Shown here piece after piece: positions 1 through 6,714 of a stretch of 6,714 nt of DNA (position 1 is its first letter; each line of letters opens with the position of its first letter). Under the pieces are notes generated by a model, which was given only the letters and a program-made list of their open reading frames with translations, ran no database searches and was not told the DNA's origin. A program made the position numbers and the translations under genes. Origin of the DNA: Alphaproteobacteria bacterium (lineage in GTDB: Bacteria; Pseudomonadota; Alphaproteobacteria; Rhizobiales; Aestuariivirgaceae); assembly GCA_020441605.1 (NCBI GenBank), contig JAGRLX010000355.1:3688-10401 (forward strand), in the 5' to 3' direction.

Positions 1-277
1 GGATCGGATGCACCGGAAATTCCAGCGGAATGCCGCCGGCCTGGTAGATGCCGTCGCGCACCCGTTTCACCAGGTCGATGTGGGCGCGGTTGCAGGGTGA
101 GAGGTCGGAGCCGGTCTGTGCGATGCCGATGATCGGTTTGGCGCCCTGCAATTCACCGCGGGTGAAGCCATAGTTCAGGTAGCGCTCGAGGTAGAGCGCC
201 GTCATGTCGGCATTGTCGGGATTGTCGAACCAATGCTGCGAGCGGTATTTCAGGGGCTTCTTGGATTTGCCGGTCAT
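1..277 (-). CDS. IlvD/Edd-family sugar-acid dehydratase, N-terminal part (3' end beyond window)
   Basis: The visible 92 residues match the N-terminus of the IlvD/Edd dehydratases that act on sugar acids such as L-arabinonate or D-xylonate, removing water to give a 2-keto-3-deoxy acid in the cytoplasm. Seen directly: [20 protein letters not shown] (residues 12-31), then [17 protein letters not shown] (48-64) and [11 protein letters not shown] near the edge. Family knowledge: the Cys in SPCNR (Cys62) is the first of three cysteine ligands of the Fe-S cluster; the other two lie outside the window. The ATG at 277-275 is chosen because GAGG (287-284) precedes it by six bases and homologues start at a similar distance from the RS.HWFDNP motif. 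It lies 89 bp beyond the stop of the last sulfotransferase gene, with a hairpin and a possible promoter between them, so it is probably a separate unit of pentose or sugar-acid catabolism. The family is secure; the exact substrate is not. Confidence 0.9.
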
Positions 278-2336: not shown

Positions 2337-2981
2337 TCAAGCTGCCCGGCCGCGGTCCCGGGGTGTTGCCGTCTCATAGCCGAAGGCCTCGAAGTCCTTG
2401 GCGTAGTAGGCTCTCACCGCATCGGCCATGTCCTCCGTCCACCGGGCCGTGGTCGATGAACGAGACTTGTTCTTGTGCTGAAGGGGGTGGGCGATGTTGG
2501 CCTTGTTCTGGACGACGGGCCAGCCCCGGTCAATGTCCTCGAGTTTCAGGGCGTCCTCCACCAGCAGTTCGCCAATCTCGTCGTGGAGAAAATCGTACTG
2601 CGTTCCATAAAACCATGTCTGCCGCTGTTGCAGGTCCGGCAAACGCTCCAGCACGAATTCCCGGAAGTCGATGTCACTGAACAGGTAGCGCCAATGGGAC
2701 GAAATGCGGCTGAAGGGATTTCTCACGACCGAGAAGCGGTACAGGCGGTCGAACAGTTCTCGGCTGATATAGTCCATTTCGAAGTAATCGCGGGCGCGCA
2801 GATGGGCGAGCTTCGGCGGCCCCGGCTTGCCGTGAAACAGCTTCCCCTTCTGCAGACAGAGCATCAGATGGCGATGCTCGCCGAATTTCAGTCCGATATC
2901 GTTGAGGAAGGCGTTCTCTATGCTTTGTCCGCCGCATTTCGGAATGTGCACGAACAGGGTCTTATGCCAAAGACTCAGCAT
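2337..2981 (-). CDS. Small sulfotransferase family 2 protein (214 aa)
   Basis: This is a predicted PAPS-dependent carbohydrate sulfotransferase of the family 2 type, the group that includes heparan/chondroitin enzymes and their bacterial homologues. TLFVHIPKCGGQSIENAF (residues 8-25) is the characteristic 5'-phosphosulfate loop with IPKCGG. YRFSVVRNPFSRISSHWRYL (81-100) is the 3'-phosphate-binding region with the diagnostic RNPFSR. AYYAKDFEAFGY (191-202) is the usual C-terminal motif. At 214 residues it is compact but has both cofactor sites. The ATG at 2981-2979 is preferred to a TTG four codons upstream because GGAG (2991-2988) lies six bases before it and the TTG has no such site. It starts 18 bp after the stop of the three-module gene, so the two are almost certainly co-transcribed. 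No membrane segment or signal peptide. The acceptor is unknown; family assignment is very secure. Confidence 0.92.
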   Translation of the reverse strand: MLSLWHKTLFVHIPKCGGQSIENAFLNDIGLKFGEHRHLMLCLQKGKLFHGKPGPPKLAHLRARDYFEMDYISRELFDRLYRFSVVRNPFSRISSHWRYLFSDIDFREFVLERLPDLQQRQTWFYGTQYDFLHDEIGELLVEDALKLEDIDRGWPVVQNKANIAHPLQHKNKSRSSTTARWTEDMADAVRAYYAKDFEAFGYETATPRDRGRAA

Positions 2982-2999: not shown

Positions 3000-5528
3000 T
3001 CACGATAGGGCCAAGGGCTGTTCCGCATCGGCGTCGAGTTGGAGATCCAGGCAGCGGAAAGTCATTTCCACCCACTCCGGGAGACTGTAGAGCCTGGGCT
3101 TTCCGCCGGCCTTGACAGTGGTGCCGAGTTCGATCTCCTGTCCCTTCACCATCGGCTTGCGCGGCAACTGCAGACCCAGCAGTTCGATCATGGCTGGGTA
3201 GCGTCCCGGTGCGATCTGTCCGAGAGGTTCGCGGGCCGGTATCCCTGCCGGGGTGCCTTGGCGCGAAACCCCGGCTTTCGCCAGAATGCGCTCCGCCAGC
3301 ATTTCCAAAAGCTTCAGCCGCGGGTGGTTGAAGGTGAAGAACAATTCCTCGCGGCGCCATTGCTCGGCTATATAGTCCGATATGGCGGTATCGAGTGTGC
3401 GTTCGCGGTCGGCCAGTTCCTGAAGCGATTGGGCGGGAACGCTGGCATAGTCCGAGATCAGGTCGCCGCCCTTGCGATAGGCCGTGACGACGTCTTTCAC
3501 CTCAAGCCCCCGGCGCCAGGCATTCAGCGACACGCTGCTCTGGTATTCGCCGAGCGGGCCCAGGATGCGTCCACCGCCAGGCAGCCGCGCATAGCAGATG
3601 TCGGGGCACTGGCCCTTGAAGAAGATGTTCGGCCAGGACAAGACCTTGTCGCCCAGCTCCTGCCGGAGATTGACGAGCCGCACGAATCTGGTCGGATAGT
3701 TGTCCGATACGCTTTGGGCGAGGACCAGGTCGCATTTCCGCAGGCCCTGAAGTGCGGCATCGGCATCGCGATCGGCGGCAAGGTGCACGATCACGATCTG
3801 GGGCACGGTGATGCTTGGAACCAGCGTGCCCAGAATCGTGGCAAGCGGCCTTGCCTGTTCGTTACCGACAACGCCGATCACGGGCCGGGCGGTCTTGCCA
3901 GCGGCCGGCATTGCGGGCGCGCCTGCGGCTGCCGGCTGTGCCGGCGTCCCGGCGAAGTACTGTTCGATCTCGCGCCGCCGTCCGAGTGACAATCGTGTCA
4001 GGTCGTAGGTGTCGTCCGTGGGTTTGCGACGGTTCAATGCCCGCATCGCCTCGATCCGCGGGGGACCGACGAGGGCCTCGGCCGCGAGCCGCCGCGCTTC
4101 CATCACCTGGCTGTCGGAGGGCCGGGAGTTGACCACCTGGAAGCTCTTCGGCAAGTCGAGCGGAGCCTGGCCGGCGCGGGCCATGAAATCGGCCATGAAG
4201 GCGTCTGGGCCCTGCTTGATCAAGTCGAATCCGGCCATCTGCAGGTTTCCGCCAAAGGCAGCGGCCAGGTCGCCCGCCAGGCGGTCGAAGGAAATCGACC
4301 TCCAGTCGACGGAGTCGAGGAATTCCTCGATGGTGCCCTCGAAGCGCAGATTGGAAATGGTGTTGCCGTAGAGGCTCTCGATCAATCCGGGTTCGTCGCG
4401 GCGATAGAGGATCACGCTGGTATTGTGCTCGCGGGCGATGGAGGCGAGGCTGCTGGCGATGACGGACGCGGCCTCGTAGAACTTGGTGATGCGCAATTCG
4501 CCCGCCATGGCGAATTCCCCGATCGGCGGGCCGAGCAGGTTCTCGTCGGAAATGATGATGGTCTCTTGCGCGGTATCCCGCATCAACTGGTCGAATGCCT
4601 GCCGGGCCTTCCTGAACAGCGGCTGGGTGAAGAGCTGTTGGCCGGTTTCCAATGCGGCGGGGCTATGCTGTCCCGCCTTGATGAGATGTTTTCCGAGGGC
4701 GAGGAAACTGTCGCGGAAGGGCCGGTAGGCTGGGAAACTCTTGCTATGGGCCGAGTAGACTGCCGTATCCCTGGCCGCCAACTGGTCTTCCGCCGATTTG
4801 AGTGCCAGTTGGATCAGCGTGCTGGCGGTCTTGTGCACGCCCAGATGCAGGACGATCCGTTTGCCCGGCCCGAAATAGGTGCGGAAGATCGAGGTCCGGT
4901 TCTGGGCGGCGGACCAGTGCGTGCCGTCGCTCTTGTAGGGCAGGGCCTGGTTGAAGCGCACCAGGGTTCCGGCGATCTCGTCATGCTTGAGGATCAGGAT
5001 CGCCAGCGGTCCGCCCTCATGGGCCCTGGCAAGCTCCGTCCAGATCGTCGGGCCGGTCACGAAGTGAACATTGTTGCTGGACTTGCTGGCGACCCGCTCC
5101 AGCATGGTCGTCAGGAAATCCCTCAGGAAGGGTGAGCCCGCGGGGGCCCAGAACAATCCGTTGTTGATGGCGCCATGCCAGCGTCGATAAAGGACGAGTT
5201 CGGTGCCGGGTGGAACGCGCTCATCGATCCGGGCGATGGCGACGGTCGAGGCATCGATATACATGCCGCCGTCGAGGTAGGTATAATAGGCCCTGAAGAT
5301 GTCGGATTTCATGGCCGGCAGGTAGCAGCCGACATAGGCGTCCAGCACGCCCTCGGCAAATTCGGCACCGGCCGCGGCCTTCTCGGTCAGATAGGCCTGG
5401 GCCGAGTCGCCGTCGAACTGCACCATTTCGAAATCGGGATAGACCTGCTTCCATGTGGCAATGGAGTCGGCGACAAGGCCGGCGTTCTCCTTGCTGTGCC
5501 AGTAATGGACTATTTTCTTTGGAAGCAT
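3000..5528 (-). CDS. Three-module protein: glycosyltransferase, sulfotransferase-like, WcbI-like acyltransferase (842 aa)
   Basis: Three modules are visible in order. Residues 1 to about 218 resemble GT32 (OCH1-like) and Caps_synth sugar transferases: KKIVHYWHSKENAG at the start, KSDIFRAYYTYLDGGMYIDA (74-93) as the nucleotide-sugar site, and VTGPTIWTEL (157-166). Residues about 222-525 form a sulfotransferase-like module with IVLHLGVHKTASTLIQ (225-240) as the phosphosulfate loop, TIIISDENL (323-331), and VILYRRDEPGLIESLYG (372-388) as the 3'-phosphate site. A Pro/Ala-rich linker (about 526-548) leads to a WcbI-like module (549 to about 755), the fold of a CoA-binding capsule acetyltransferase: VIGVVGNEQ (550-558), LVLAQSVSDNY (601-611), WPNIFFKGQCPD (632-643), FFTFNHP (730-736). 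The last 85 residues are not assigned. The first module ends and the second begins with almost no linker. The ATG is preceded by AGGA six bases away. No signal peptide or membrane helix. As the first gene of the operon it may add a sugar that it or its neighbours then sulfate or acylate (inference). Confidence 0.85.
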   Translation of the reverse strand: MLPKKIVHYWHSKENAGLVADSIATWKQVYPDFEMVQFDGDSAQAYLTEKAAAGAEFAEGVLDAYVGCYLPAMKSDIFRAYYTYLDGGMYIDASTVAIARIDERVPPGTELVLYRRWHGAINNGLFWAPAGSPFLRDFLTTMLERVASKSSNNVHFVTGPTIWTELARAHEGGPLAILILKHDEIAGTLVRFNQALPYKSDGTHWSAAQNRTSIFRTYFGPGKRIVLHLGVHKTASTLIQLALKSAEDQLAARDTAVYSAHSKSFPAYRPFRDSFLALGKHLIKAGQHSPAALETGQQLFTQPLFRKARQAFDQLMRDTAQETIIISDENLLGPPIGEFAMAGELRITKFYEAASVIASSLASIAREHNTSVILYRRDEPGLIESLYGNTISNLRFEGTIEEFLDSVDWRSISFDRLAGDLAAAFGGNLQMAGFDLIKQGPDAFMADFMARAGQAPLDLPKSFQVVNSRPSDSQVMEARRLAAEALVGPPRIEAMRALNRRKPTDDTYDLTRLSLGRRREIEQYFAGTPAQPAAAGAPAMPAAGKTARPVIGVVGNEQARPLATILGTLVPSITVPQIVIVHLAADRDADAALQGLRKCDLVLAQSVSDNYPTRFVRLVNLRQELGDKVLSWPNIFFKGQCPDICYARLPGGGRILGPLGEYQSSVSLNAWRRGLEVKDVVTAYRKGGDLISDYASVPAQSLQELADRERTLDTAISDYIAEQWRREELFFTFNHPRLKLLEMLAERILAKAGVSRQGTPAGIPAREPLGQIAPGRYPAMIELLGLQLPRKPMVKGQEIELGTTVKAGGKPRLYSLPEWVEMTFRCLDLQLDADAEQPLALS
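3264..3884 (-). other. WcbI-like putative acyltransferase module inside the 842-aa protein
   Basis: Residues 549-755 of the three-module protein follow the order of conserved blocks I associate with WcbI, the putative acetyltransferase of the Burkholderia capsule locus: a first strand ending in GN.Q, a Leu-Val-Leu-Ala-Gln block, WPNIFFKG, a Ser..ELADRER block, and FNHP near the end. The expected GNCQ reads GNEQ here (Glu557, codon at 3860-3858). The assignment rests on motif memory only and needs a profile search. Confidence 0.65.
3954..4865 (-). other. Sulfotransferase-like module inside the 842-aa protein
   Basis: Residues about 222-525 carry both cofactor-site motifs of P-loop sulfotransferases, HKTAST (232-237) and the YRRDEPGLIES segment (375-385). 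The block order is the same as in the 371-residue protein at 1166-2281 (loop, then a strand ending in Ser-x-Glu, then the Arg-containing helix), which points to one subgroup, though identity is low. Confidence 0.75.
4875..5528 (-). other. GT32/Caps_synth-like glycosyltransferase module inside the 842-aa protein
   Basis: Residues 1 to about 218 show the KIVHYW start, a SDIFR...GG.YIDA nucleotide-sugar-binding block and a TGP motif. In OCH1-like GT32 enzymes the metal-binding motif reads DxD; here it is Asp92-Ala-Ser94, closer to the DAT/DAS form seen in capsular polysaccharide synthesis proteins. Sugar donor and acceptor are unknown. Confidence 0.75.
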
Positions 5529-5750: not shown

Positions 5751-6714
5751 TCATCCGGCCCATTTGCTGTCCGGGCCGGAGGTCAGGTTGAGGATGCCAC
5801 GTGCGGCGCTGGTGGTCCAGTCGAACTGGGTGGCTCCAGTCACCAGCTGGTTGAAGCTCCAGGCTTCGGCGCTGGACACCGGGCTCATGCTGGTGGACGA
5901 ATAGTCACCCCAGCGGCAGGCGCCGCGCGACGTGGAATTGCATGGCGTTCCAAAACCGTCGGTGGCGAACTGCGACCCGGACGTGGCCGCAACCGCGTAG
6001 CTCCAGCCAAAATTGCCGTGATTCAGGCCGGTGAACACCAGGTGGGCGGCGTTGCCGGTCCCGGCGGTCGCCGCCGTGCGCGAGGCTGTGATGATCGCCG
6101 GCGCGCCGAGGAGGCCCGAACCCGTGGCAATCGACGGGTTGAACAGGTGGCCGGTGGGATCATCCGAGAGGAATTCGGTCACCGCATTCACCGTGCTGGT
6201 GGTCGATGTCTTGCTGAGCGAATACCAGCGGATCGCGGCCCGGCCGCCATTGTTGACGGTGTGAACGTTCCAGATGTTGCCCAGCGACTGAATGCTGTTG
6301 GACTGGAAGCGTCCGTCCAGCGTGTCGAGCTTCTGGCCGTTCGGCTGGGGAGCGCCGGAGGCTGAGGTCCAGGCCGGGATGGCGTAGGATGGCTTGGCCG
6401 CGACCGTATCGTTCAAGGCATCGCCGCTATTCTGGCCCTGATTCTTGAGGTCATAACGGACAATTGTATTGCCGCCACCGGATCCAGGAGAGAGAAATGT
6501 CGCCTGAATGTTGGTGTCGAGCTGGATCGGCGGGGCGAGGTTCGGCTCCAGGCCCTGGAAGCATGCTACGGACACCGGGCTGCCGGTCAGCGTCGGAATC
6601 TTGTCGATCGACAGGATGGCACCTGGAACAGTCGTGCCGAAGTCATTGGCGGTGATGAACCAGCGGTAGTGGCTGGAGCCCACATTGGGATAGTCCCAGA
6701 AGCTGTTGGCGGCC
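5751..6714 (-). CDS. Probable exported beta-propeller-like protein, C-terminal part (5' end beyond window)
   Basis: The frame is open to the window edge, giving 320 visible residues with the start and any signal peptide outside. It is rich in Ser, Thr, Ala, Gly and Asn, as in secreted proteins. FWDYPN at 6701-6684 followed by YRWFITANDFG resembles the DYP.vG....yit.N.F block of secreted propeller-like hypothetical proteins. CRWGDYSSTSMSP at about 5915-5877 resembles the WGDYS..s.dP block near their C-terminus. Only three cysteines are visible, two of them eleven residues apart just before WGDYS (CNSTSRGAC), which could form a disulfide outside the cytoplasm. I do not recognise an enzyme active site. 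It is separated from the sulfotransferase operon by a strong terminator, so a functional link is not implied. Coding is certain; the fold and export are inferred from composition and motifs. Confidence 0.75.
   Translation of the reverse strand, partial: AANSFWDYPNVGSSHYRWFITANDFGTTVPGAILSIDKIPTLTGSPVSVACFQGLEPNLAPPIQLDTNIQATFLSPGSGGGNTIVRYDLKNQGQNSGDALNDTVAAKPSYAIPAWTSASGAPQPNGQKLDTLDGRFQSNSIQSLGNIWNVHTVNNGGRAAIRWYSLSKTSTTSTVNAVTEFLSDDPTGHLFNPSIATGSGLLGAPAIITASRTAATAGTGNAAHLVFTGLNHGNFGWSYAVAATSGSQFATDGFGTPCNSTSRGACRWGDYSSTSMSPVSSAEAWSFNQLVTGATQFDWTTSAARGILNLTSGPDSKWAG

What the first reader, a model, noticed from the sequence alone, without database searches (positions are those of the whole stretch)
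3000..5528. One polypeptide joining a glycosyltransferase, a sulfotransferase-like module and a WcbI-like acyltransferase
Motifs of three different transferase classes appear in order in an uninterrupted 842-codon frame. Sugar, sulfate and acyl transfer are usually made by separate proteins. A fusion suggests sequential decoration of one residue: add the sugar, then sulfate and/or acylate it without releasing it. I do not know this exact architecture as a described enzyme. The frame is open with normal codon use throughout, so it does not look like an assembly artefact.
Basis: partly seen in the sequence, partly recalled or inferred. Interest (0 to 1): 0.7.

Follow-up and report, generated by a model that had tools for sequence, protein, structure and literature searches.

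The report
Three-in-one enzyme decorating bacterial surface sugars
One bacterial protein joins a sugar-transferase-like part, a sulfate-transferase-like part and a part related to WcbI, a capsule protein whose working partner is unknown; relatives carry the same parts fused in pairs or side by side, which suggests what that partner may be.

Summary
Confirmed: window 5528-3000 (minus strand) encodes one 842-residue protein with three modules: a GT32-like GT-A domain (1-217), a PAPS-sulfotransferase fold (222-530) and, after an Ala/Pro linker, a WcbI domain (551-833). It heads a compact operon with three further sulfotransferase-like genes. The triple order was not found again in the samples searched. 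Elsewhere the modules are neighbouring genes or pairwise fusions: GT+ST (2), WcbI+GT (1), WcbI plus another sulfotransferase type (1). A sulfotransferase gene directly adjoins wcbI in 14 of 19 loci.

The WcbI module has Glu557 where WcbI's CoA-contacting Cys14 lies (Cys in 30 of 30 readable relatives). And the GT belongs to a clade, linked to WcbI, that lacks the last Asp of DxD (0 of 7 have it, against 31 of 35 other GTs) and has gained a Trp-His pair (7 of 7 against 0 of 35).

So "add sugar, sulfate, acylate" is only partly supported. Best reading: a scaffolded decoration enzyme of a sulfated surface polysaccharide. Boldest: the altered GT is the acceptor-presenting partner postulated for WcbI. 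No activity was tested.

The parts
3000..5528 (-). Tri-modular protein, 842 aa: GT32-like / sulfotransferase-like / WcbI
4878..5528 (-). GT32-like module, residues 1-217; D92-A93-S94 in place of DxD, R116-W117-H118 motif, SDxxR at 75-79
3939..4865 (-). PAPS-sulfotransferase-like module, residues 222-530; H228-x-G-x-H232-K-T, S327-D-E, R377 and S385 invariant in 10 rows
3885..3938 (-). Ala/Pro-rich linker, residues 531-548, 81% GC
3003..3884 (-). WcbI module, residues 549-842 (Pfam match 551-756, fold match 546-833); E557 in place of Cys14, H735 = His201
2337..2981 (-). Sulfotransferase ST2a (Sulfotransfer_2, 41 bits), GGAG ahead of its ATG, 18 nt after the fusion's stop codon
1166..2281 (-). 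Sulfotransferase-like STb, no Pfam hit; relatives beside wcbI in L007, L013 and L023
367..1134 (-). Sulfotransferase-like ST2c (Sulfotransfer_2, 20 bits, just under the cut-off of 22); a homologue adjoins wcbI in 14 of 19 loci

Best explanation
The protein is a natural fusion of three subunits that elsewhere are neighbouring gene products of one polysaccharide-sulfation cassette. The ST module sulfates, from PAPS, a sugar of a surface polysaccharide or of its lipid-linked intermediate (inferred from fold and motifs). The GT32-like module supplies the specificity for that sugar, either by transferring it with a changed metal site or by holding it. The WcbI module binds CoA or acyl-CoA beside it (inferred from its family). 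Shown: the three folds (predicted), the gene order, the conserved neighbourhood and the pairwise fusions. Inferred: a common glycan substrate, sulfation as the core reaction, and acylation, which the loss of Cys14 makes doubtful in this protein.
For: Folds. ST motifs invariant in 10 of 10 rows. Neighbourhood: ST2c directly adjoins wcbI, same strand, in 14 of 19 genome loci that were found through WcbI peptide patterns; some sulfotransferase-type hit lies in 17 of 19. GT+ST fusions L007 and L009; WcbI+GT fusion L097; WcbI plus Stf0-type sulfotransferase L099; separate neighbouring genes in L001, L012 and L013. L007 has ST2c, WcbI, STb and GT+ST in one row; L009 has ST2c, WcbI, GT+ST and ST2a. 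Nucleotide-sugar and large glycosyltransferase genes lie in several of these loci (annotated; ORFs named by eye).
Against: No activity is known for any module here. E557 replaces the CoA-contacting Cys14 and DAS replaces DxD, so one or two modules could be inactive. The WcbI tree does not group the WcbI genes that have this GT as partner. No PAPS-synthesis, export or polymerisation gene was recognised in the window. Only one instance of the triple order is known. How the modules sit against each other is not predicted reliably (pTM 0.41).
Confidence: 0.6

Rival explanations
1. Orthodox three-step enzyme: the GT adds the sugar, the ST sulfates it and WcbI acylates it, without release.
For: Presence and order of three transferase-type folds; other GT motifs (SDxxR, TGP, HW) are invariant in the three GT+ST proteins; His201 is kept.
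Against: The DxD and Cys14 equivalents are missing. WcbI alone showed no activity in three assays (PMC4104973). Elsewhere the modules are mostly separate genes.
Confidence: 0.2
2. Sulfotransferase with two binding domains: the GT-like and WcbI-like modules have lost catalysis and only hold the glycan and scaffold the complex.
For: Both active-site changes; of the three modules only the ST keeps all its motifs.
Against: The rest of the GT motifs and the Asn-His-Pro of WcbI are strictly kept, and the DxD loss comes with a new conserved Trp-His rather than with general decay.
Confidence: 0.25
3. Chance or artefactual joining of three genes, without functional meaning.
For: Single instance; the ST-WcbI junction is seen once.
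Against: Even codon use and GC3, 842 open codons; recurrent pairwise fusions and neighbourhoods.
Confidence: 0.05

Closest known systems
WcbI (PF18588; PDB 4bqn/4bqo)
   Different: Fused behind a GT and a sulfotransferase; Cys14 is Glu557 (codon GAA, which differs from both Cys codons at all three bases)
GT32 / Gly_transf_sug (PF04488), Och1-like GT-A fold
   Same: Predicted fold and SDxxR, TGP and HW motifs
   Different: DxD reads DAS; a Trp-His pair absent from the 35 other GTs compared; sequence score under the Pfam cut-off
PAPS sulfotransferases, carbohydrate type (NDST1 1nst, 3-O-sulfotransferases)
   Same: Predicted fold, P-loop and R...S motif
   Different: No Pfam sulfotransferase family matches; about 11% identity
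NDST1, a deacetylase joined to a sulfotransferase (named in the structure titles; its two-step action is recalled)
   Same: Works like it: two glycan-modifying activities in one chain
   Different: Different partner domains, bacterial, not a homologous fusion
Paracoccus aminovorans plasmid p_III locus (L001)
   Same: WcbI, GT and ST2c in a row
   Different: Three separate genes in the order WcbI-GT-ST2c; no ST-module hit in the 17 kb fetched

Membership tests
WcbI (PF18588) | Score over the curated cut-off (29.2 bits) | tested here: met
   133.6 bits
WcbI (PF18588) | WcbI fold (predicted model) | tested here: met
WcbI (PF18588) | Cys14, which contacts CoA | tested here: not met
   E557; Cys in 28 of 28 readable rows of 29 and in 2 of 2 further readable ones. 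So it is a WcbI-fold homologue, not filed as an orthodox WcbI enzyme
WcbI (PF18588) | His201 | tested here: met
   H735; His in 29 of 29 rows
WcbI (PF18588) | CoA binding; acetyl transfer | not testable with these tools
   Needs purified protein
GT32 / Gly_transf_sug (PF04488) | Pfam cut-off of 23 bits | tested here: not met
   21.6 bits; homologues L007, L009 and L097 pass
GT32 / Gly_transf_sug (PF04488) | GT-A fold of Och1 type (predicted model) | tested here: met
GT32 / Gly_transf_sug (PF04488) | DxD motif | tested here: not met
   DAS; 0 of 7 WcbI-linked GTs have the last D. So a GT32-like clade, not filed as an orthodox GT32
PAPS sulfotransferase | Sulfotransferase fold (predicted model) | tested here: met
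PAPS sulfotransferase | 5'-phosphosulfate loop and R...S 3'-phosphate motif (motif names recalled) | tested here: met
   Invariant in 10 of 10 rows
PAPS sulfotransferase | A Pfam sulfotransferase family | tested here: not met
   No family listed at an E-value limit of 10, (HMMER's filters drop most matches above about 0.1)
PAPS sulfotransferase | Sulfate transfer from PAPS | not testable with these tools
   Needs purified protein

The most novel reading that the evidence does not exclude
The GT32-like clade that travels with WcbI, with D-x-[S/A/G] for DxD and a new Trp-His motif, is the acceptor-presenting partner that WcbI's discoverers postulated. It holds the sugar and completes WcbI's active site, and in this protein partner, sulfotransferase and WcbI are one chain.
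Probability: 0.25. Interest if true: 0.8.

Novelty: new variant of a known kind. Interest (0 to 1): 0.6.

Why it matters
WcbI has a solved structure and binds CoA, but no activity was found and its partner was unidentified in the 2013 paper (PMC4104973). Natural fusions are direct candidates for that partner and give single-chain constructs from environmental bacteria in which to test it. The cassette also marks a way in which Gram-negative bacteria may build sulfated, perhaps acylated, polysaccharides.

Tried and rejected
Full-length search of 5.8 billion proteins: only the window's own protein at E <= 1e-3, but the tool scored only the 7998 candidates sharing most words. The ST module alone found 2 relatives under the same limit. 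The GT+ST alignment found, besides itself, four partial relatives, one of them a TPR+GT protein, and no new GT+ST fusion. Plasmids: 14 records with a match, none covering 80% of the query. No match in phages or, with WcbI patterns, in viral contigs (278 pattern matches, none confirmed).

First genome scan with the whole protein: 24 pattern matches, no relative. Whole protein in 385 class-level genomes around G009: 4 with a match; in 369 around G005: 3; no triple order in either (each count includes the centre itself). GT+ST alignment in 194 and 248 genomes: 8 and 52 with a match; both modules in one match only in G003, already known. Whole protein in 17 genomes of the family whose dehydratase is most like the window's partial one: 1 match, GT only. 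WcbI family in 247 and 292 order-level genomes: 9 and 8 with a match; 4 of the 18 places lie in frames over 450 aa, and in all 4 WcbI is followed by something other than the triple order (in L096 the rest has no Pfam hit). The host is not identified: the dehydratase fragment is at best 75-79% like Alphaproteobacteria.

Whole-length alignment A4 put the ST rows on WcbI and was not used for folding; for A8 the L007 and L009 rows were cut short, so residues 377-539 are poorly predicted in the full-length model and the ST fold was judged from its own model. The TPR-protein matches to the ST module are weak (E 0.61) and were set aside. The WcbI tree does not cluster the GT-linked rows (6 changes, 230 of 500 shuffles as low), which speaks against long co-inheritance of all modules.

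For the Cys count, held 29 relatives of my choice (L015 cut short); of the six WcbI hits left out there, two more are readable and have Cys (L028, which is the same place as L095, and L092), while L019, L091 and L094 lack that end and L093 was not matched by my profile. For the GT comparison I dropped duplicate loci L024, L029, L032 and L033 and matches under 70 bits; 42 rows remained, 40 in the trees (two short ones left out). The profile was seeded with the window's relatives. L100's GT lies 3.6 kb from a wcbI gene on the other strand and was counted as unlinked (it has E and no Trp-His). Apart from L004 and L100 the unlinked GTs were seen with only about 1.5 kb of flank, so a more distant wcbI is not excluded. 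Linked GTs form one clade (96/95; 94/91 without the motif columns), so the motif change is one evolutionary event and the Fisher p of 1.2e-5 overstates independence. The L018 gene fragment, outside the seeds and the table by its low score, shows the same D-A-A and Trp-His.

Full report
What is there. On the minus strand, 5528 to 3000, lies one uninterrupted frame of 842 codons. The two other frames of that strand have 25 and 7 stops there; codon score and GC3 are even across the three modules. Residues 551-756 match WcbI (PF18588, E 9.7e-39). Residues 20-101 match Gly_transf_sug just below its cut-off (21.6 of 23 bits). The middle matches no Pfam family.

Operon. The fusion is followed on the same strand by ST2a (2981-2337, 18 nt after the stop codon), STb (2281-1166) and ST2c (1134-367). 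ST2a passes Sulfotransfer_2 (41 bits), ST2c falls just short (20 of 22 bits), and STb has no Pfam hit but carries a P-loop by eye and has relatives beside wcbI. So four sulfotransferase-like modules lie in about 5.2 kb. That they are one transcript is inferred from strand and spacing.

Elsewhere. A scan of 84,980 species genomes with WcbI peptide patterns gave 103 stretches, of which 19 encode a relative. A homologue of ST2c directly adjoins wcbI on the same strand in 14 of 19; in three more (L013, L016, L023) a sulfotransferase-type hit lies further off or is of the STb type; L017 has none, and L019 is cut by the contig end. The GT module is fused to the ST module in L007 (Aestuariicella) and L009 (Shewanella benthica). 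In L013 (Lentibacter) WcbI, STb, GT and ST are four genes in a row. In L012 and on the Paracoccus plasmid L001 the GT follows WcbI. Of the 9 and 8 genomes with PF18588 in two order-level samples (four of them, G001, G005, G009 and G016, already seen), four carry wcbI in long frames: L097 WcbI+GT, L099 WcbI plus a Stf0-type sulfotransferase, L098 WcbI+GSCFA, and L096 WcbI plus about 590 residues without a Pfam hit. The window's triple protein thus joins what others hold in pairs or as neighbours. The triple order itself was not found again; the searches were samples (see Tried and rejected).

Active sites. A profile alignment places Cys14 and His201 of 4bqn on GNCQ and FNHP. The window reads GNEQ: E557, codon GAA, which differs from both Cys codons at all three positions, so one base-calling error cannot explain it. 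Cys stands in 28 of 28 readable rows (of 29) and in two more hits left out of that alignment; His in 29 of 29. In the GT, the seven members linked to WcbI all read D-x-[S/A/G] at DxD and carry R/K-W-H; of 35 other GT32-like domains 31 keep the D and none has Trp-His. The seven form one clade (96/95; 94/91 with those columns removed), so this is one event, not seven. An eighth, broken copy in L018, outside the seeds and the table, shows the same letters. Against a simple story, the WcbI tree does not group the GT-linked rows: the modules seem to have been combined and recombined.

How it most likely works. Sulfation is the best-supported activity. The GT-like module either transfers a sugar with a changed metal site or holds the acceptor. 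WcbI binds CoA; whether this copy still acylates is doubtful. The WcbI paper (passages, part of the abstract among them, and the Discussion in full) reports CoA binding, no activity in three assays, no apparent site for an acceptor, and a proposed unidentified partner that presents the acceptor. The fusions make the GT-like and sulfotransferase modules concrete candidates. That is inference.

Literature. Searches for WcbI (11 papers listed, most about other things), PF18588 and WcbI family (0), glycosyltransferase-sulfotransferase as a phrase (0), and combinations of sulfotransferase, glycosyltransferase and fusion or polysaccharide terms (3, 0, 1 and 5 papers) gave no description of this architecture in what I saw; most subscription papers are not in that library. 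A search on rhamnose and biofilm plasmids gave a listing that I did not follow. Of PMC11766843 and PMC4483657 I read passages only: a sulfated Cobetia capsule cluster and an Aeromonas O-antigen cluster, neither with this protein in the passages seen.

Verdict. The parts are known families; two of them have altered active sites. I call it a new variant of a known kind, with a testable link to an open question.

Noticed in passing
L098:2953-5145: WcbI fused to a GSCFA domain (both over the Pfam cut-off), 731-residue frame.
   Followed up: partly
L099:7015-8802: WcbI fused to a Stf0-type sulfotransferase, 596-residue frame.
   Followed up: partly
L096:5300-7909: WcbI followed by about 590 residues without any Pfam hit in one 870-residue frame, beside ST2c.
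   Followed up: partly
L043:1-2130; P0006: GT32-like domains behind TPR repeats. 19 of the fetched GT frames have at least 450 residues ahead of the GT; for the others TPR was not checked.
   Followed up: partly
L053:430-2541; L062:397-2061: GT32-like domain (under the cut-off) joined to an APH-type kinase, and GT32-like joined to Anp1.
   Followed up: no
L071:3397-5916: GT2 domain (PF00535) joined to a module that matches the ST profile, 840-residue frame.
   Followed up: no
window 5751-6713 (-): 320-residue frame open at the window's edge, without a match in Pfam, PHROGs, PDB sequences or plasmids.
   Followed up: partly
window 2-277 (-): Start of an IlvD/Edd-type dehydratase, at best 75-79% like Alphaproteobacteria.
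   Followed up: partly
window 5184-5528 (-): Residues 1-115 match phrog_28262 (765 positions, unknown function, E 4.5e-7), so a related domain occurs in a phage-protein family.
   Followed up: no
L018:9131-9373: Broken GT gene fragment beside wcbI in Microbulbifer, with the same altered DxD and Trp-His.
   Followed up: yes
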